A DNA stretch of 43,906 nt from an uncultured Prevotella sp. Its GTDB lineage: Bacteria > Bacteroidota > Bacteroidia > Bacteroidales > Bacteroidaceae. This document shows, in pieces, positions 2,296-43,906 of this stretch. The position numbers and the translations under genes were made by a program. The first letter of the stretch is position 1; the number at the start of each line of letters is the position of its first letter. Below the pieces are notes generated by a model. That model searched no databases and had not been told where the DNA came from. It worked only from the letters and a program-made list of their open reading frames with translations. The stretch is taken from positions 1-43,906 of the forward strand of contig CAJOOC010000086.1 in the NCBI GenBank assembly GCA_905236165.1. The letters run 5' to 3'.

Positions 2296-4845
2296 TTATT
2301 TTATCATTGTTCCGGCAGTAGTAAAGGTGCCGTTAGGTGTTACTATTACTATGTGTCCGTCTTTCACGGTCTTCCTTATGCTCTGCTTCTGCGTCTCAGC
2401 ATCGGTGGTGCTTGTGATGCCCGTAGTGCTGTCGGTGAAGAGCAGCGAGCTGTACAGGTATGACAGTGCATCAGGCACCTTCAGATAAGCCTTGTATGGG
2501 CTGCAGCGCTGTGTGTTGTCTGCTGCTACCTTGTAGAATGCCAGGCCGGTCGCCGGCAGATTCTGCATCACGTAGCTGCCCTGTGGCACGTAAACAGCCT
2601 CGTTTGTCGTATTGCCTACCAGCAGACCGTTCTGATACTGTCCCGTAGGTGTCGTAGGACCGCTGAAGGAGTATGTTCCTGCAGTGCCGCTGACGAGGTA
2701 TGCCTTGTTCATGGCAATCTCCGTAGCCTCGCTCTTTGTCAGCAGAGAGCCTTCCACATCAGTCACCTCATATAGCGTCAGCCCTGCTGGCTTCTCAGCG
2801 CTGAACGGCAGACACAGCGTACCCCAACCTGCAGAACTAAGCTTGTAGTCGATGGTCTGCTTGGCTGTTGGGATAAAGTATGTCTGATATAAATTATATA
2901 ATGTAGTACCTGATGTGTAATCATCAATTTCTATCGAATATCTTGAATTCTCGGTAAGGGTAAGGCCTGAGGTGTTCGTCTTGTTGAGTTCTACTGTGGT
3001 GCTTTCACCGTTGGCCAGTGTCAGATAATACATCCAATAGCCGCATGAACTGCCGCCACTCTCTGGGTAAATCCATGTTACGATAAGCTTGTTGTTGATG
3101 TCTGCCCCTGAATTGTTCTTAAACTTCAGCGTCAGGTTCATGCTTTCATCGTTTGTGCCGTCAAGAATAGTATATTCGCCGTTCTTGCCAAATGAAGGCA
3201 CATCTGTAAGATACAATGTATTTCCTTCTGTTATCTCAAGCGTGGGAATCGTTTCTTGTGTTGTTGGAATGTCTTTCCATACTGGCGTTTCTTCTGCGTT
3301 GTCGTAATATGTAGGATATACGTGGTAGGTCTGTCCTGCTTCTGCAAATATATTTAGGCTAAATCCTTTTACGTTAGAGGAAATAAGCGGAAAAGAGTTC
3401 TGGTCCAAGTTGTTTGATGGACCTTTCAGATAGATGCTCTCGTTTGTGGATGTATTCTCCAACCTCACGCCATAGGAAAGGCTCTTCGTCTCAAAGCTGC
3501 TATTCTTGAAAATTCCGAGCAAATAGAGTTTAGCGCCTACGTTTAATGATGTGATGGTAGAGGCACCGTTAGACAGAGAATATCCATCAGGGTTTGTCAC
3601 TTTGCATGCATAGGCATTTCCCTGATTTGGCTGTATTCCTATCAGCACGTCCTGATCTTGGTCGTAAGATGAACCTGCTGCTCCGCCACCTGAGCCTGTG
3701 CCGTCAGGAGTCAGGGCCTTGACACCGTTTGCCGTGCCTTGCAGAGGGAAGAACCCATTGCAGTTGCCACTCCAGCCCCAGTTCATGTGGTAAAGGTCGT
3801 TGCCGTCCTCATATTTGTATCCGTCGCATATAAAGGAATGACCAGCGGAGCCAGTGCTGCCACTGTAGATAACAGGCCTGTCTGATGCCAGCTCTGCATA
3901 AATCATCTCGGCCCATGTGTCATCGTTGTAAAAGACGCGTTCTTCAAAAGACATGCCCTTGTCATATCCGAAATAATTGATCATTCCCCGCCCCAAGACT
4001 TCCGTTGATGCAGAGGAACCACCGTTGTAGAAGGTACAATAGTTCATGCTTGCAGCCACACCGCAGTGGTACATCAGGGTAGCTACAGCATTCTCTGCGT
4101 CTGTTCCTGTCCCTGAATCAGTGCCGCTGTACGAATTGTAGGAGTAGGTCGTAGTCATCTTGTCCCACTGGTACGTGGTGCTACCGAAATCAGCACTGTA
4201 TGTTTTGCTGTATGCTGATTCATAGGTTTTACTTCCTGTACCAGTAGTCGGGTACTTATGATAGAACATCACCTGTGCAGCAGCTGTAGCTACACATCCC
4301 GTTGCTGTTGCATTATTATAATCCGTGTAGCTGCATTGAGTGTAAAATTTCGGTATCGCCGTGTTAAATGGCGCCACCTGGTCCCATGTCGTTTCTACAA
4401 GGGGAGCGATGTCGGCACGGGCAATGGTGTTCACCTTCCCCTTTGCTGGTTGACTGAGGGATATGGTGCCCTGCTTCACGCCCTTGATGGCGCTGCTGAT
4501 CTGCTGCTGGTACTGCCCTAACCACCATTTCACGTTCTCCGGTGCTGTGGCATAGTCGAAGGTGCCGTGGTCCACGTAGCCCAGTATGGTGCGTGCTGCC
4601 TCGTCACCGCCAACGATTACGAAGCCGCCGCCGCTCTGGTTGAACACATAATAATATGTTTCGTCACCTTGCTGCGCAGTATACGCCAGTTTCACCTCCG
4701 CTGTCGTGCCGCCCTTGGCGCCGGCGGTGTGCTGGCTGAGGAATGCGGAAGCCTTCTGCTGCGCATCGCTGAGGCTTACAGTCTGACCGTACATCGTTGT
4801 CGCCGATGCCATCAGAATGAATAATGCTGTGAATAAGTGTTTCAT
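2296..4845 (-). CDS. Secreted C10 (streptopain-like) cysteine protease
   Basis: 849 residues. A signal peptide covers about residues 1-21 (hydrophobic LFTALFILMASATT, then YGQT). Residues about 22-120 look like the inhibitory Spi/C10 propeptide (YYYVFNQSGGGFVIVGGDE). The catalytic domain has the nucleophile C184 in TATGCVATAAAQVM and the general base H336 in GSAGHSFICDGY, followed by the HMNWGWSG motif at about 353-360, as in SpeB and interpain. The remaining ~480 residues are beta-rich and end in a KDGHIVIV...GTMIK tail like Bacteroidetes C-terminal sorting regions, which suggests type IX secretion. The family cleaves host proteins with broad specificity. A promoter lies just upstream and a 48-residue gene just downstream. 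Confidence 0.92.
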   Translation of the reverse strand: MKHLFTALFILMASATTMYGQTVSLSDAQQKASAFLSQHTAGAKGGTTAEVKLAYTAQQGDETYYYVFNQSGGGFVIVGGDEAARTILGYVDHGTFDYATAPENVKWWLGQYQQQISSAIKGVKQGTISLSQPAKGKVNTIARADIAPLVETTWDQVAPFNTAIPKFYTQCSYTDYNNATATGCVATAAAQVMFYHKYPTTGTGSKTYESAYSKTYSADFGSTTYQWDKMTTTYSYNSYSGTDSGTGTDAENAVATLMYHCGVAASMNYCTFYNGGSSASTEVLGRGMINYFGYDKGMSFEERVFYNDDTWAEMIYAELASDRPVIYSGSTGSAGHSFICDGYKYEDGNDLYHMNWGWSGNCNGFFPLQGTANGVKALTPDGTGSGGGAAGSSYDQDQDVLIGIQPNQGNAYACKVTNPDGYSLSNGASTITSLNVGAKLYLLGIFKNSSFETKSLSYGVRLENTSTNESIYLKGPSNNLDQNSFPLISSNVKGFSLNIFAEAGQTYHVYPTYYDNAEETPVWKDIPTTQETIPTLEITEGNTLYLTDVPSFGKNGEYTILDGTNDESMNLTLKFKNNSGADINNKLIVTWIYPESGGSSCGYWMYYLTLANGESTTVELNKTNTSGLTLTENSRYSIEIDDYTSGTTLYNLYQTYFIPTAKQTIDYKLSSAGWGTLCLPFSAEKPAGLTLYEVTDVEGSLLTKSEATEIAMNKAYLVSGTAGTYSFSGPTTPTGQYQNGLLVGNTTNEAVYVPQGSYVMQNLPATGLAFYKVAADNTQRCSPYKAYLKVPDALSYLYSSLLFTDSTTGITSTTDAETQKQSIRKTVKDGHIVIVTPNGTFTTAGTMIK

Positions 4846-4989: not shown

Positions 4990-5027
4990 AATTCGTTAGT
5001 TTGTTAATTTGTTAATTTGTTAATTCG
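4990..5027. repeat. AT-rich repeat at the gluQRS 3' end
   Basis: Three to four head-to-tail copies of GTTAATTT(G) overlap the gluQRS stop codon. A near reverse complement lies at 5936-5970, so the gene is bracketed by inverted copies. Related words recur at about 6710-6745. Confidence 0.7.
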
Positions 5028-5936
5028 AATGTCTTCCCTCGGCACCTTGTCCCAGTCGAAGAGCGGCAGCAGCTCTTCCGCTGTTGTGGGGGTGGGGTGG
5101 GGCAGTAAGCCGGCCAGATGTCCCAGCATCCCTATAATCTCCTGTGGGGTATGGCGCAGTCTCAGTTCTCCCATGTCCATGCTCTTGTCGCGTTTCGACA
5201 GTCTCTGCCCGGCATCGTTCGTCAGCAGCGGGAAATGTATGTAGCGTGGTGAGCTGAGCCCCAGCAGCTCAGCCATGAATGCCTGTTGCGGCGACGAGAG
5301 AAGCAGGTCTCTGCCCCGCACCACCTCCGTCACGCCTGTCAGGGCATCGTCCACTACCACCGCCAGCTGATAGGCGAAGGCCCCATCCTTGCGGCGCACG
5401 ATGAAGTCGCCCACCTGTTCGTACAGGTCTACCGTCACGTCGCCGTAGTGTCCGTCGTGAACCGTCACCACCCTGTGCGGCACCTCCACGCGTAGCGCGG
5501 CAGCTCCTGCTTTCACAGCAGCTATGGTGGTTCCCCCCTCCCTCACTTCGGTGAGGGCCGGTGTGTGGCTTTCCCTATGCACTACCACCCTTCCGTCGCT
5601 CTCGTGCGGGGCCTGTGTGGCCAGGATGTCGGCGCGTGTCCTGTGGCATTCATACAGCACGCCCTGCTCCCTTAGTTTCTCAAGGTATGCGGCGTATATC
5701 TCTGTGCGCTGGCTCTGATACACCACCTCACCGTCCCATGTCAGCCCTAACCATTCCAGGTCGTCCATCACGCGGTCGGCATACTCTTGCCTGCTACGCT
5801 GTGGGTCTATGTCCTCTATGCGCAACAGCCACCGACCCTCCTGCTTATGTGCGGAGAGCCATGAGAGCAGAGCACTGAACACATTGCCCAGATGCATCCT
5901 GCCCGTGGGCGATGGTGCGAAACGACCGGTGATCAA
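5004..5936 (-). CDS. gluQRS: Glutamyl-Q tRNA(Asp) synthetase
   Basis: 310 residues, a truncated GluRS-like enzyme that activates glutamate and attaches it to queuosine in the anticodon of tRNA-Asp. The N-terminus GRFAPSPTGRMHLGN contains the HIGH-type signature (H15-N18), LRIEDIDPQRS follows, and the KMSKS-type loop is LSKRDKS near residue 245. The anticodon-binding domain of true GluRS is absent, which separates it from gltX. The last six codons (INKLTN) and the stop fall inside an AT-rich TTAATTTG repeat, so the extreme C-terminus may be repeat-derived. Similar repeats lie just upstream of the start. It has no close operon partner. Confidence 0.9.
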   Translation of the reverse strand: MITGRFAPSPTGRMHLGNVFSALLSWLSAHKQEGRWLLRIEDIDPQRSRQEYADRVMDDLEWLGLTWDGEVVYQSQRTEIYAAYLEKLREQGVLYECHRTRADILATQAPHESDGRVVVHRESHTPALTEVREGGTTIAAVKAGAAALRVEVPHRVVTVHDGHYGDVTVDLYEQVGDFIVRRKDGAFAYQLAVVVDDALTGVTEVVRGRDLLLSSPQQAFMAELLGLSSPRYIHFPLLTNDAGQRLSKRDKSMDMGELRLRHTPQEIIGMLGHLAGLLPHPTPTTAEELLPLFDWDKVPREDIRINKLTN

Positions 5937-29473: not shown

Positions 29474-29995
29474 ATGGAAGAGAAAATGATCGTTGTCAAC
29501 AGAACTAAGTCAAACAGCTCAAGTCTTATGGTTTGGCAGGTAGCAATCACCGGGGAAACATTCGTGAAATACTGCAAAAGCCCCCTCAAAGCCCTCCGTT
29601 TGGCTTTCTTGCTGAAAAAGTCTAAAGGCGTGAACATCGCTATGGAAACCATCGCCTCCCTCAAACAGGAGATTAGCCACCAGAAGGAAAGGCTGCAGCA
29701 GCCCGATGTGGAGAGTATCGAAGTACAGGAGACATCTGTTACGATGCGGCGCTTTAAGGAGTTTAAGTCTAAGCATCCGGATGCGTTGCTATTATTCAGG
29801 AATGGTGATTTCTTCACGGCCTATTACCAAGACGCTGAAGATATAAGCGATATCCTGGGCATCGCTATCACTAAGAAAGGTAAGCGCATCACTGCCTCTT
29901 TCCCATACGACGCCCTTGACACATATCTGCCTAAACTTGTCAGGGCAGGCAAGCGTGTCGCCATTTGCGAAACAAAGACTGAGACAGCTGCTTAG
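29474..29995 (+). CDS. Protein with a MutS domain I-like module
   Basis: 173 residues. The C-terminal half (91-167) closely follows the MutS mismatch-recognition domain: FKEFKSKHPDALLLFRNGDFF, then DAEDISDILGIAITKK and SFPYDALDTYLPKLVRAG, ending RVAICE. The aromatic of the recognition loop is kept (F113 in GDFFTAY), but the Glu of the FYE motif is replaced by Thr (T115). No clamp, core or ATPase of MutS is present, so this is a solo module, perhaps used to bind distorted DNA or to compete with MutS. The N-terminal 90 residues are not recognised. The gene is in an accessory block. Confidence 0.7.
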   Translation: MEEKMIVVNRTKSNSSSLMVWQVAITGETFVKYCKSPLKALRLAFLLKKSKGVNIAMETIASLKQEISHQKERLQQPDVESIEVQETSVTMRRFKEFKSKHPDALLLFRNGDFFTAYYQDAEDISDILGIAITKKGKRITASFPYDALDTYLPKLVRAGKRVAICETKTETAA

Positions 29996-40100: not shown

Positions 40101-43100
40101 ATGAAGAAAAGAACATATGTAGGGGCGGTGACACGCCCGATATCGCTGACGGCGGCCATTAGAGTAGAAAACCCGTACAACGATCAGAATACAGACCAAT
40201 ATGGCACCCTGACGCAAAGTCTGGACTCACTTACCGCTGAGTATTACCCCAACAGACAGACATACCCTACAATCCTGGGGCTGCATGTGCTAATGGAAGA
40301 CCCTAACGGAAACACTGTACAAACCGAAGTGACATGGGGCGGAAGGAATACTGTCGCATGGGAGATAATCAGGAATGGTGTGACAATAGCCGTGACAGCA
40401 CAGTCAGTAGGGGATTTTACTCTCAACGGGCAGCAGCTGCGCGTGAAGCTCAACCAGACAGTGGCAGACGGCAACGTCTTCGTAAGAGCCACAGGAACAT
40501 TCTACGACAGTGTAGGAAGGGCTCAGACAGCCGTTGCGGAAGTGCTGATGGGACTGAGCGTCTCAACTGCTACTAACCTGGCGCTGCTTCGCGATAAACT
40601 GGGAACAGTAGGCTATGTGGGGGAGTTCTTCCGGCTGAACCCGCTAACTCTCGATACGGAGACAAAGCTGGAGAATGCTGCTAACTGGAAGAAGAAATGC
40701 GCCGTACAGCTGTGCGAGGGAACAATGCCTATTCCTGATGCTTTCCCGCTTAACAGTAACGGTGACATCACTGATGAGGAAGACTATGCCGACACACCGC
40801 AAGGCTCGGCATTCTATTTCTGGTTCTATCGCACGCCCGACAACAGACTGATACAATGCACGCAGGACACGGAATGGATAGACGGCGCATGGTTGTCAAA
40901 CGGTACTGCTGCCAAAGAGGTGACGGTGGATCTTACTAAGGTGCAGCAGGTACGTCTGGTGTGTAGGGCTGGCTATATTCCATACGGTCAGTTAGAGGAC
41001 TATCTTGACGATGACGGTCTGGTACGTCCGGAGAAACTGATGCTGGGTTTCAGGGAGATGACATTCGACGTAGGTGTCGAACTGCCTGACGTGGAACGTA
41101 TTACCGTAGCAGATATCGCACACTGCAGACTGGAACGCACGGAACTGGACAGTAGCAGCATCACAATCATAAAACGCGCTATGGTGACAGCAGGAGGTAC
41201 GACGCTAAACAATCTCACAGAGATAACACCGCATACCATTGGCACACAGTCATGGGTGGAGAAGCTATACGCTATAGAATGGTTCCTGACGGATGCCGGC
41301 GGAGATGATATCAGCATCGGAACGGGGGAGTGGCTCCGGATATCTCCTGCCCAGCTGGCCTCACTCAATGGCGCTCCGCTGGATGCCGACAATATGCCGC
41401 CAATGACAGTGAGCGTAGAACCGCGGTATCCGAAGCTTACCGGCAACAATTACGTGGAGGGCTATGTGAGAGGTGCCAGTGCTGTTACTCCCAGTCAGCA
41501 GCAAGGCAACAAAGCCTTCCTGAAACAGTTGGATCTCTGGCTGATTGACACCACAGACAACGAGAACGAGACAACACGAGGCTTGAAACTGATGCGTAAT
41601 AACATCCTGAGGTTTGCAGGAGGCTGCTGGGCTCCTGCTGTTCGTATCAGTGAAGAGATGGCTGCTGATGCCCTGCTGGAGCTGTGGCGGAAAAACAGCA
41701 GCGGCGAGTTTGTGAAATACTGCGATGCTGGCTCCTACGAGCCGGAGGCATATGTGGAGAATGTGCTCAGACCCTATTTCAGTGGAACACTGGCAGGATG
41801 GTACACGGAAGAGGACGGCGGGTGGCCACGGCTGTATAAAATCGTGGAGTCGGAGTATGTCGAGGCACATGCAAGGACACCATGGGAAACGACGAAGACG
41901 AAATTCACCATTGGCGTTGGATATGCCTTCGGAGTCTATCTGCTGGATCATCAGAAACGCAATGATGGAGAATGGGAGTGGAACGGCATCTTCACTGATC
42001 AGACTAAGTGGGATGGTATAGATATCTCGCAATACTACCTTCCACCAACGGCATTCTCACCAGGACCTGTGACGCAGATTGAGGAAAACGGTAAAACGGT
42101 GTTCCGTAATTTCTTCTACTTGCAGCACCCTCAGGGAGGTATCGGAGGCGTATCTGCCGCCGGCATTCTCGGGAGTACGATGTTCAATGAAACAGGACGA
42201 GCCTATCCAAAAACAGATGATGTCAATGCTCTGACAAATGCGACACGTGCCCGCGCTAACAATAGCGTGGAGGGACGTAGCTATCCTTTCGCCGAAGGCG
42301 GTTTCCATGCGCTAAATACACTCATTACATCGCAGGAACTGTTGTATTCGCGCCGCAACCCATTTGTAGGTACGATGTTTGGTAGCGGTATCAGTAGCAA
42401 CGACACATGTAACAGTGAGGCAACATGGCGAAAAAATGGAGGTATCCGTCATAAGGTTGATGGGACTTCAGATTACAGATATGTATTGTGGAGTGCGAAG
42501 CTTCCAGTAAAAAGTGCAGCAAGCAGCAATAAAGACGCTTCTGAAGACCTGAATGACAATCATCCCAAGGAACAGTGCATGGAGAGTCAGTTAGCTGCCT
42601 CCTTTGCGGCGGAGTTCGGCATTGCTCCAACGACTAACACTGCATCTCCAGTATACTTTGATATGTATGGTGGGAAATATTATTGGATGAAACCTGACGG
42701 TGTGGAGTCTCTGGATGAAGGATACATGAATGTCCGTGTATACCGTGAACTGAGCGATATATTGACAGGCTACAACTCTGACGGCGAACAGACTACGTGC
42801 GAAGTGACTGCTATCCTGCGTATGAGCCTGATGGGAGGCATGAACCTTTCTGGAGACATATCTATGTATGCTCAGGGAGGTGCAGAAGTTGTTGGAGAAT
42901 GTACAATTAACCCTAGCACGAGCAAATACGGGAATCCGCTGACTGCATACCTCATTCCGGACCAGACCAAATGGCAGAATGATACCGAAGTGTCAAAGAA
43001 TGCACCGGAGAAATTCCTTATTGAGGAATGTAATGATGCCATCATGACAGGGGAAGGAACCAATATCGCTAACGGATATTACAAACGTCGAATAGGTTAT

Positions 43101-43331
43101 TCGCCAATCAAAGATGAGAATGCTGGTAGTAGTATCGGTAGTTATGAGTGTTGTTATGGTTATACAACCAACAATTGGGGAACTCTCGGCAAGCGTGTTC
43201 GTTTGGCCCTCCGTTTTCGCGGTACTGCGAATACTGCGTACTGTTCGCCGCGCAACTGGTATGCGAACATCAGCGCTTCTAATGCTAATCGCTACTATGG
43301 GGGCTCGGCTCAGGCTAAAATTGGCACGTAA
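40101..43331 (+). CDS. DGR target protein, probable receptor-binding virion protein
   Basis: 1076 residues with a beta-rich body. The C-terminus is encoded by the variable repeat (43203-43315) and carries the diversified positions: T1042, T1045, Y1054, I1057, Y1065 and Q1071 differ from the template-encoded N, N, N, N, N and K, and A1070 differs silently. The pattern around them (RLALRFRG, then AYCSPRNW and NANRYYGGSA) is like the C-type-lectin-like variable domains of other DGR targets, in which variable residues form the ligand face. The gene begins 12 bp after the preceding virion gene, so it is in the late operon. The role as the receptor-binding tip is inferred from DGR systems such as Bordetella phage Mtd. 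Confidence 0.85.
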   Translation: MKKRTYVGAVTRPISLTAAIRVENPYNDQNTDQYGTLTQSLDSLTAEYYPNRQTYPTILGLHVLMEDPNGNTVQTEVTWGGRNTVAWEIIRNGVTIAVTAQSVGDFTLNGQQLRVKLNQTVADGNVFVRATGTFYDSVGRAQTAVAEVLMGLSVSTATNLALLRDKLGTVGYVGEFFRLNPLTLDTETKLENAANWKKKCAVQLCEGTMPIPDAFPLNSNGDITDEEDYADTPQGSAFYFWFYRTPDNRLIQCTQDTEWIDGAWLSNGTAAKEVTVDLTKVQQVRLVCRAGYIPYGQLEDYLDDDGLVRPEKLMLGFREMTFDVGVELPDVERITVADIAHCRLERTELDSSSITIIKRAMVTAGGTTLNNLTEITPHTIGTQSWVEKLYAIEWFLTDAGGDDISIGTGEWLRISPAQLASLNGAPLDADNMPPMTVSVEPRYPKLTGNNYVEGYVRGASAVTPSQQQGNKAFLKQLDLWLIDTTDNENETTRGLKLMRNNILRFAGGCWAPAVRISEEMAADALLELWRKNSSGEFVKYCDAGSYEPEAYVENVLRPYFSGTLAGWYTEEDGGWPRLYKIVESEYVEAHARTPWETTKTKFTIGVGYAFGVYLLDHQKRNDGEWEWNGIFTDQTKWDGIDISQYYLPPTAFSPGPVTQIEENGKTVFRNFFYLQHPQGGIGGVSAAGILGSTMFNETGRAYPKTDDVNALTNATRARANNSVEGRSYPFAEGGFHALNTLITSQELLYSRRNPFVGTMFGSGISSNDTCNSEATWRKNGGIRHKVDGTSDYRYVLWSAKLPVKSAASSNKDASEDLNDNHPKEQCMESQLAASFAAEFGIAPTTNTASPVYFDMYGGKYYWMKPDGVESLDEGYMNVRVYRELSDILTGYNSDGEQTTCEVTAILRMSLMGGMNLSGDISMYAQGGAEVVGECTINPSTSKYGNPLTAYLIPDQTKWQNDTEVSKNAPEKFLIEECNDAIMTGEGTNIANGYYKRRIGYSPIKDENAGSSIGSYECCYGYTTNNWGTLGKRVRLALRFRGTANTAYCSPRNWYANISASNANRYYGGSAQAKIGT
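43203..43315 (+). repeat. DGR variable repeat (VR)
   Basis: 113 bp matching the template repeat at 43570-43682 (offset 367) except at seven positions: 43225 C, 43234 C, 43260 T, 43270 T, 43293 T, 43310 T and 43311 C, each opposite an A in the template. The differences are three A-to-C and four A-to-T. Homology ends at 43315: the next bases differ with no A bias. The 3' part (CTATGGGGGCTCGGC) is identical and GC-rich, as at the initiation-of-mutagenic-homing site of other DGRs. Confidence 0.93.
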
Positions 43332-43340
43332 GGCGCAGCA

Positions 43341-43400
43341 GCGCTGCAAGCGCAATAAAGCCGCTGCAAGCGGCGCGGAAATGGCGGCCTTCGGGCCGCC
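43341..43400 (+). other. Three consecutive hairpins downstream of the VR
   Basis: GCGCT-GCA-AGCGC (43341-43353), CCGCT-GCA-AGCGG (43361-43373) and GGCGGCC-TTCG-GGCCGCC (43383-43400), with the first starting 25 bases after the VR end. A hairpin or cruciform just after the VR is known to promote homing in Bordetella phage DGR; this set may do the same or act as a transcript end. The third loop is a stable C(UUCG)G tetraloop. Confidence 0.7.
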
Positions 43401-43451
43401 TCGCCAAAAAAAAATACTGCTAAAGCTTACGCGTGTGTCATATTTTTTTAT

Positions 43452-43459
43452 TACCTTTG
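43452..43459 (+). promoter_or_regulatory. Probable promoter for the template repeat RNA
   Basis: TACCTTTG is a perfect -7 element 110 bp before the TR. A -33 element is not clear. It would drive a separate transcript through the TR and the reverse transcriptase. Confidence 0.55.
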
Positions 43460-43569
43460 TCGGCGAAAATTATAAATCCACGGGCGTCGTGTCAACTTCT
43501 GCATCGGGACTGAGGCTCTGAAATACGAGGACGTGGTTGAGTCAGTAATGACAATAGGGTGACGTGTCA

Positions 43570-43682
43570 TTGGCCCTCCGTTTTCGCGGTAATGCGAATA
43601 ATGCGTACTGTTCGCCGCGCAACTGGAATGCGAACAACAGCGCTTCTAATGCTAATCGCAACTATGGGGGCTCGGCAAAGGC
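43570..43682 (+). repeat. DGR template repeat (TR)
   Basis: 113 bp with 26 adenines. Read in the frame of the target it gives ten AAY codons (Asn), plus TAC, AGC, TAT, GCA and AAG codons. AAY codons cannot become a stop by change of A, so nearly all variants stay full length; only the single AAG codon could give TAG. No protein is predicted here. The TR would be transcribed and copied by an error-prone reverse transcriptase with adenine-directed mutation. Confidence 0.92.
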
Positions 43683-43880
43683 GAGAAAACCATATATCCG
43701 TGACACGCACCCGCCCGGAAACGGCGAACATAAAAGACCTGCGAGGTGGCGGCATTCTCAGGAATGTGTCTGGTAAGCGCCTCATGGCTCAGCCTGAGCC
43801 GATGTGATAAGTAATTTGATTATTAATTCAAGTTTCGCAAGTTCCTAACTTGCCAGTTTTAATTGATAAAGTTCAACGAA
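43683..43880 (+). ncRNA. TR RNA 3' spacer
   Basis: 198 bp between the TR and a possible next gene; in the known system this spacer folds and primes cDNA. Hairpins GGCTCA-GCC-TGAGCC (43786-43800) and GCAAGTT-CCT-AACTTGC (43837-43853) are visible. The 3' end is not defined. Confidence 0.45.
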
Positions 43881-43906
43881 ATGACTGAGTTTATCCGACC
43901 GATTCA
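43881..43906 (+). CDS. Possible start of the DGR reverse transcriptase
   Basis: An ATG at 43881 opens a frame (MTEFIRPI) to the right edge, after an A-rich leader. DGR reverse transcriptases usually follow the TR, so this is the expected place, but eight codons show no family feature. It could equally be another gene or none. Confidence 0.3.

What the first reader, a model, noticed from the sequence alone, without database searches (positions are those of the whole stretch)
43203..43682. Diversity-generating retroelement: template and variable repeats at the end of a phage virion gene
The two 113-bp copies differ at seven positions, and all seven are adenine in the template (43592, 43601, 43627, 43637, 43660, 43677, 43678). 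Chance would not put every mismatch on A: 26 of 113 template bases are A. The variable copy is the C-terminus of a 1076-residue virion gene; the template is downstream and non-coding. This is the defining signature of a DGR acting on a phage adsorption protein.
Basis: partly seen in the sequence, partly recalled or inferred. Interest (0 to 1): 0.95.

Follow-up and report, generated by a model that had tools for sequence, protein, structure and literature searches.

The report
Prophage hypermutation cassette cut short
A likely prophage of a Prevotella-like bacterium carries the template and target of a hypermutation cassette that likely keeps rewriting the tip of a predicted receptor-binding protein, and its closest relatives carry an unusual reverse transcriptase with asparagine in place of the second aspartate of the active-site motif.

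Summary
Two of the seven (43310, 43311) look like fixed differences shared by relatives; the hypermutated core is 5 of 5 at A. The reading as a diversity-generating retroelement (DGR) holds. A 99%-identical homologue differs at 12 residues, ten at template-A codons of this repeat. In 34 non-duplicate loci, window included, 446 of 470 VR/TR mismatches fall on template A. A reverse transcriptase (RT) follows the template in 29 of 31 loci with enough sequence. The window's own RT is not seen: the contig ends 224 bp after the template, inside a predicted insertion sequence a few bases short of the expected RT start. New beyond the finding: relatives' RTs carry GxPxSP (118 of 120) and often YADN (68 of 120), and a covarying RNA stem brackets the template (9 of 11 pairs; 30 of 33 loci). 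GxxxSP is known from phage crAssE-Sib; I found no DGR paper with YADN.

The parts
40101..43331 (+). DGR target gene, 1076 aa, predicted receptor-binding (tail) protein; variable repeat at its C-terminus
43203..43315 (+). Variable repeat (VR); hypermutable core 43203-43309, 3' end is the IMH-like segment
43299..43315 (+). IMH-like 3' end of VR, matched by an IMH*-like end of TR; role inferred from BPP-1
   Evidence: fixed VR/TR difference in six relatives; BPP-1 layout from passages of PMC12875486
43340..43400 (+). Inverted repeats just after VR (43360-43374; 43383-43400), candidate for the stem-loop that aids retrohoming in BPP-1; inferred
   Evidence: similar in the window and five relatives; single-sequence fold not better than shuffles, z -0.96
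43478..43556 (+). Conserved 5' part of the predicted template RNA
43559..43570 (+). 5' arm of the stem that brackets TR
43570..43682 (+). Template repeat (TR)
43700..43710 (+). 3' arm of the stem that brackets TR
43712..43826 (+). Conserved spacer between TR and the expected RT start
43827..43906 (-). End of a predicted insertion sequence (transposase-like C-terminus on the minus strand), where relatives begin the RT gene; contig ends inside it; its first base may be up to 3 bases further left

Best explanation
The window ends with the target gene, variable repeat and template repeat of a diversity-generating retroelement that likely rewrites the tip of a predicted phage receptor-binding protein, using a reverse transcriptase that is expected just past the contig end, behind a predicted insertion sequence. 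Inferred mechanism: the region from about 43478 to 43826 is transcribed; a stem closes around the template repeat; the RT copies the template repeat into cDNA and misreads its A's; the cDNA replaces the variable repeat, guided by the shared 3' end (IMH/IMH*). Rounds of this would swap up to ten Asn (AAY) codons near the C-terminus for other residues and so would change what the virion binds. Shown: repeats, A-only mismatches, variation between homologues at those codons, order target-TR-RT in relatives, covariation of the stem. Inferred: transcription, copying, homing, receptor binding. In this copy the predicted insertion sequence parts the template RNA from the RT gene; whether the RT survives beyond it, is expressed, or is lost is not known.
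For: Repeats and A-only mismatches. P0001: 10 of 12 residue differences at template-A codons of VR, 2 in the other 1034 residues. Entropy 2.85 bits at ten AAY sites, 0.74 at 28 other VR residues, 0.69 elsewhere, over 35 rows. 46 relatives plus the window: VR/TR pairs in 37 of 47, 34 non-duplicate, 446 of 470 mismatches at A while A is 924 of 3750 template bases (that script penalised non-A mismatches more when trimming ends; with even penalties, my sum of the printed rows is 349 of 367 in 27 pairs, duplicates included). RT after TR in 29 of 31. Best solved relative of the RT family by profile and by fold is 8ub7, titled a DGR RT. Stem: 96.4% of cells paired, 9 of 11 pairs with changes on both sides, 0 of 500 shuffles as high on four of five measures and 11 of 500 on the fifth (the tool warns that related sequences can beat shuffles; slid versions reach at most 55.5% paired); stem at p<=0.05 in 30 of 33 loci, window included. 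Annotated relative: phage crAssE-Sib, target 36.8% and RT 38.9% identical, with VR, IMH, TR, IMH* and RT marked in the record.
Against: No RT in the window and none in the bin by four searches; the bin is 83% complete. Only 5 of 23 core A's are changed here against about half in relatives. The RT family lacks the usual DGR motif GxxxSQ. Of 36 relatives with at least 1500 bases after the target, five have no TR by my scan (L029, with only a 48-base repeat, L032, L037, L039, L044) and six no RT (L031, L032, L037, L039, L041, L044). Two VR/TR pairs stray from the A rule: L061 (12 of 19) and L024 (6 of 9). The AlphaFold model of the target is poor in the VR region and no C-type lectin fold was listed for it. 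Single-sequence folding of the template RNA is no better than shuffles (z -0.14).
Confidence: 0.93

Rival explanations
1. The cassette is a dead remnant: the insertion sequence has cut the RT off, VR is frozen, and the 5 mutations date from before the insertion. (A variant of the best explanation: same system, no longer working here.)
For: Predicted insertion sequence 3-18 nt short of the expected RT start; no RT in the bin; few changed A's. Precedent: DiGReF names a DGR RT disrupted by insertion elements in Acaryochloris marina (PMC3521204, passages).
Against: P0001, nearly identical outside VR, is strongly diverged inside it, so the lineage was active recently. Template, stem and spacer are kept in the window. 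The insertion may sit between template RNA and an intact RT gene, which could still be expressed or supplied in trans.
Confidence: 0.4
2. The insertion sequence at the contig end is a mis-join: assemblers break at repeats, and most cells have the plain target-TR-RT order.
For: Contigs C86 and C87 both end inside the same repeat; only about 80 bases of it are on the contig.
Against: The junction at about 43826 lies inside the contig, and the repeat begins at about the same letters in C87 and in copies from other genomes.
Confidence: 0.2
3. A tandem gene duplication decayed downstream; the A-only pattern is chance.
For: Two copies 92% identical over 118 bases can arise by duplication; only 5-7 differences.
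Against: p = 1.7e-5 for seven, 3.2e-4 for five; the same pattern over 34 non-duplicate loci; RT next to TR in relatives.
Confidence: 0.01

Closest known systems
DGR of epsilon crAss-like phage crAssE-Sib (OR575929.1; PMC11054128: abstract and passages seen)
   Same: Homologous target (36.8% over residues 465-1071) and RT (38.9%), same order target with VR, TR, RT; GxxxSP in the RT
   Different: Its RT keeps YADD; its target is 685 residues, matching the C-terminal 56% of ours; its template is followed directly by the RT; it is a 151 kb crAss-like phage
Bordetella phage BPP-1 DGR (mtd-avd-TR-brt)
   Same: TR to VR, A-directed changes, structured spacer between TR and RT, stem-loop after the IMH of VR (PMC12875486 passages); 8ub7, the best solved RT match, is its RT as I recall
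   Different: BPP-1 has avd 5' of TR and a YMDD RT with GxxxSQ (alignment); in the six closest relatives there is no room for avd between TR and RT (148-188 nt); avd elsewhere was not searched for
Bacteroides hankyphage DGR (PMC12135933, search listing only; that it has a DGR is recalled)
   Same: A DGR in a temperate phage of Bacteroidales
   Different: Not compared by sequence here

Membership tests
Diversity-generating retroelement (DGR) | TR and VR repeats with mismatches at template A | tested here: met
   7 of 7 (5 of 5 in the core)
Diversity-generating retroelement (DGR) | VR at the 3' end of a protein gene, TR outside it nearby | tested here: met
Diversity-generating retroelement (DGR) | VR diverse and the rest constant among close relatives | tested here: met
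   P0001; entropy over 35 sequences
Diversity-generating retroelement (DGR) | RT gene in the cassette | tested here: inconclusive
   Window contig ends 224 bp after TR; RT present in 29 of 31 relatives with TR and enough sequence; not found in this bin
Diversity-generating retroelement (DGR) | RT with (I/V/L)GxxxSQ motif (typical: 90% of DGRs in DiGReF, PMC3521204) | tested here: not met
   Tested on relatives only: GxPxSP in 118 of 120 RT homologues. SP is among the exceptions listed in DiGReF and in crAssE-Sib, so the motif is typical, not strictly defining
Diversity-generating retroelement (DGR) | YxDD active site (typical of RTs) | tested here: not met
   Tested on relatives only: YADN in the six closest with RT; 68 of 120 homologues YADN, 48 YADD. 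The window's RT itself was not seen
Diversity-generating retroelement (DGR) | Measured mutagenic retrohoming | not testable with these tools
   needs an experiment or reads
C-type lectin variable protein | VR in a C-type lectin fold | tested here: inconclusive
   Model low in confidence there; the second-look list spans mainly residues 15-155; the homologous crAssE-Sib protein was modelled as C-lectin by its authors (passages)

The most novel reading that the evidence does not exclude
This cassette belongs to a large clade of DGRs whose reverse transcriptases work with one aspartate of the YxDD box replaced by asparagine (YADN), present the template RNA in a stem-closed loop, and mutate A with a different spectrum (few A to G): a natural, functional exception to the YxDD rule.
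Probability: 0.45. Interest if true: 0.75.

Novelty: new variant of a known kind. Interest (0 to 1): 0.52.

Why it matters
DGR finders that demand the usual RT motif can miss this group: the crAssE-Sib authors report that myDGR failed on their cassette until the motif was changed in silico (passages). The group is not small: 45 target homologues and 161 RT homologues. In a tree of 145 RTs, 71 form an all-YADN clade. The nine loci that I assign to it (eight by the tree; L025 by resemblance only) still show almost A-only change: 126 of 224 core A's changed and 3 non-A changes (my sums of rows). That makes a direct question testable: how does an RT polymerise, and choose its errors, with Asn in that place? 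The covarying stem suggests defined borders for the copied RNA. The window adds a natural break between template RNA and RT.

Tried and rejected
Rfam on the window at gathering scores: 0 families. Phage collection by DNA with the target: no match. Viral contigs with the single target protein: none confirmed; the alignment query worked. Pfam and PHROGs on the target: none. Pfam RVT_1 in the own genome: none, but RVT_1 scores four of the closest relatives' RTs below its cut-off, so I repeated the search with the G298 RT (27), the L054 RT (44) and the RT profile (94). All were empty for G000, 35 of 299 genomes of the genus rang, five of them strongly (E under 1e-50), the rest probably with other RTs. 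Other targets of the same TR: a DNA search of the own genome with 43570-43906 found the known VR as the only TR-like hit; its other hits lie in the end repeat. Continuation of the contig: the end repeat matches C87, but in the orientation of a shared repeat end, not of a continuation. I first read the end repeat as the start of a transposase gene; the plus-strand frames there ran from 5 to 389 codons over seven copies, two of them cut by contig ends. The minus strand gave the C-terminus of a frame shared with one of six copies scanned (L067), weakly DDE_Tnp_1 (E 0.023, under the cut-off); so 'insertion sequence' is a prediction. C-type lectin folds were not listed for the target; its C-terminus was not folded alone.

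The A to G shortage: YADN clade 7 of 126 changes, other YADN loci 9 of 64, YADD 49 of 163; per-locus tests p 0.005 (9 loci counted to the clade), 0.16 (5 other YADN loci), 0.006 (all 14) against 13 YADD loci. The loci are related and selection on codons was not removed; the second group on its own does not support it. I hold it as a lead. Arms swapped between loci: own pairing mean 26.3 against 17.4, and own beats all but at most one of 32 swaps in 20 of 33 loci, so this test is weaker than the covariation count.

Fetched but not counted: same-genus RT loci L089-L093. L089 and L090 hold the RTs of L054 and L057 again; L091 (YADN) and L093 (YADD) have target, TR-like piece and RT; L092 has a weak target match and a divergent RT. 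Dropped before counts: three loci whose target runs off the contig (L023, L048, L053) and three duplicates (L027, L034, L051) in the mismatch sum (L034 and L051 are inside the 31 and 36); L030 in the stem test, flank too short; 41 of 161 RT homologues not listed by the tool; three short RT pieces (L025, L028, L049) left out of the tree.

Full report
What the window is. The window is the whole of contig C86 (43,906 bases) of a draft genome of 2,507,489 bases in 171 contigs, 83% complete. Its left end holds rpoA and ribosomal protein L17 genes. Further right come a DnaG-like primase that matches phage primase families, a head maturation protease, a structural protein with an Ig-like domain and a weak portal match. 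It is therefore most likely a prophage in a bacterial chromosome. The five closest genome-contig relatives are titled uncultured Prevotella or Prevotellaceae, and two of them lie in genomes that the tool lists as the same genus as the window's.

The observation. The two repeats are as described. Two of the seven mismatches, at VR 43310-43311, look fixed: all six closest relatives with a template (L020, L022, L054, L055, L057, L058) read CTCAGGC in VR, with CAAAGG in TR in five and CTAAGG in L057. This is the place of IMH/IMH* in BPP-1 (PMC12875486, passages). The hypermutated core is 107 bases with 5 of 5 mismatches at A.

Variation between homologues. P0001 is 99% identical over 1076 residues. 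It differs at 12: residues 476 and 561, and ten in VR, nine at AAY codons and one at a TAT codon of TR. Over the window and P0001-P0034, the ten AAY-codon residues have mean entropy 2.85 bits, the 28 other VR residues 0.74, the other 1034 residues 0.69; two of those 1034 exceed the median AAY site.

Relatives. Searches gave 34 viral-contig and 12 genome-contig loci. Three targets run off the contig; seven have no template by my scan, two of these with only 192 bases after the target; 36 have VR and TR. With the window that is 37, of which 34 are not exact duplicates. In these, 446 of 470 mismatches are at A; A is 924 of 3750 template bases. Changes: A to T 218, A to C 150, A to G 78, all others 24. 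Exceptions are L061 (12 of 19) and L024 (6 of 9). Of 36 relatives with at least 1500 bases after the target's stop, 30 have the RT; of the 31 that also have TR, 29, two exact duplicates included. In L025, L029 and L049 the RT is in two frames.

The contig end. In the six closest relatives with RT (L020, L022, L054, L055, L057, L058), the predicted RT start lies 32-44 nt after the motif CTCAGCCTGA. In the window the same motif ends at 43797 and is followed by 29 nt, part of which resembles theirs, then by the end repeat (alignment of the window with five of them). The last 83 bases recur at 100% at the end of C87, and 19 of 150 genomes of the genus, the own one included, have a match, several over only 20-40 bases. 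The minus strand carries the end of a frame that is shared with a 157-residue frame in L067, weakly like a DDE transposase. So a predicted insertion sequence sits 3-18 nt short of the expected RT start, depending on where the repeat is taken to begin. The own bin holds no RT of the family (with positives in the same call).

The RNA. The DNA around TR is conserved between the window and five relatives although I see no gene there. RNAalifold on ten loci pairs the bases just before TR with bases 12-44 nt after it (positions). Counted on its own, this helix has 96.4% of cells paired and 9 of 11 pairs with changes on both sides. No shuffle of 500 reached it on four of five measures (11 of 500 on the fifth), and slid versions reach at most 55.5%. 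In 33 loci a stem at p<=0.05 lies there in 30; L028, L031 and L045 fail (letter shuffles, 6 template bases included on each side). The swap test is weaker (20 of 33), and single-sequence folds are not unusual. In BPP-1 the spacer 3' of TR folds and recruits the RT, and a motif 5' of TR ends the cDNA (PMC12875486, passages). I propose, as inference, that this stem marks both borders of the copied stretch. I saw no title or abstract on such a stem in three searches (listings only); the structural paper on the BPP-1 RNA, which I recall, did not come up and was not read.

The RT. A profile search puts 8ub7 first among solved structures (E 2.4e-12; next a group II intron RT, 3.4e-9), and Foldseek on the model does the same (E 1.4e-12, TM 0.75 by target length, titled a DGR RT; model pLDDT 79.5). 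The family has GxPxSP in 118 of 120 listed homologues, YADN in 68, YADD in 48, FADD in 3, YADY in one. In a quick tree of 145 RTs, 71 form an all-YADN group (SH-aLRT 97); the label needs 8 changes, at least 4 forced by well-supported branches; long branches make details unsure. YADN loci still show almost A-only changes: 190 of 355 core A's and 6 others in 14 loci; YADD 163 of 334 and 12 others (7 of them in L061) in 13 loci. DiGReF gives the SQ motif in 90% of its DGRs, with the last two residues varying in 15 of 155, SP among them (PMC3521204, passages). crAssE-Sib has SP and YxDD (PMC11054128, abstract and passages; YADD). A search for DGR with YADN or YxDN found neither word in the eight papers listed; a search for reverse transcriptase with YADN listed one E. 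coli genome paper, not read. For the window's own RT, SP and YADN are predictions from relatives.

Verdict. A real DGR, correctly spotted, in a known class but in a little-described branch of it, with the RT out of sight behind a predicted insertion sequence.

Noticed in passing
window 29474-29995 (+): A 173-aa frame in the phage part with a MutS domain I match (PF01624, E 3.1e-21), too short for the rest of MutS. A mismatch-binding piece in a phage with a DGR is curious, as homing makes mismatches.
   Followed up: no
window 2296-4845 (-): A C10 peptidase with Spi inhibitor domain (PF01640, PF13734), near the host end of the contig.
   Followed up: no
window 5004-5936 (-): A 310-aa frame with a glutamyl/glutaminyl-tRNA synthetase catalytic domain (PF00749), short for a full synthetase.
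   Followed up: no
L021 and L056 (RUG424), end: No template found in the 192 bases after the target; a weak RT-like piece starts about 106 nt after the stop by tblastn (E 1.3e-4), not found by the profile, and the contig ends there. Perhaps VR and TR were collapsed by the assembler.
   Followed up: no
L025, L029, L049: RT split over two frames, although VR/TR of L025 (14 of 14) and L049 (14 of 15) keep the A pattern.
   Followed up: partly
27 loci with VR, TR and RT: A to G changes are rare beside YADN RTs (16 of 190) and commoner beside YADD RTs (49 of 163); related loci, selection not removed.
   Followed up: partly
RT homologue P0146: Active-site box reads YADY inside an otherwise YADD group.
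   Followed up: no
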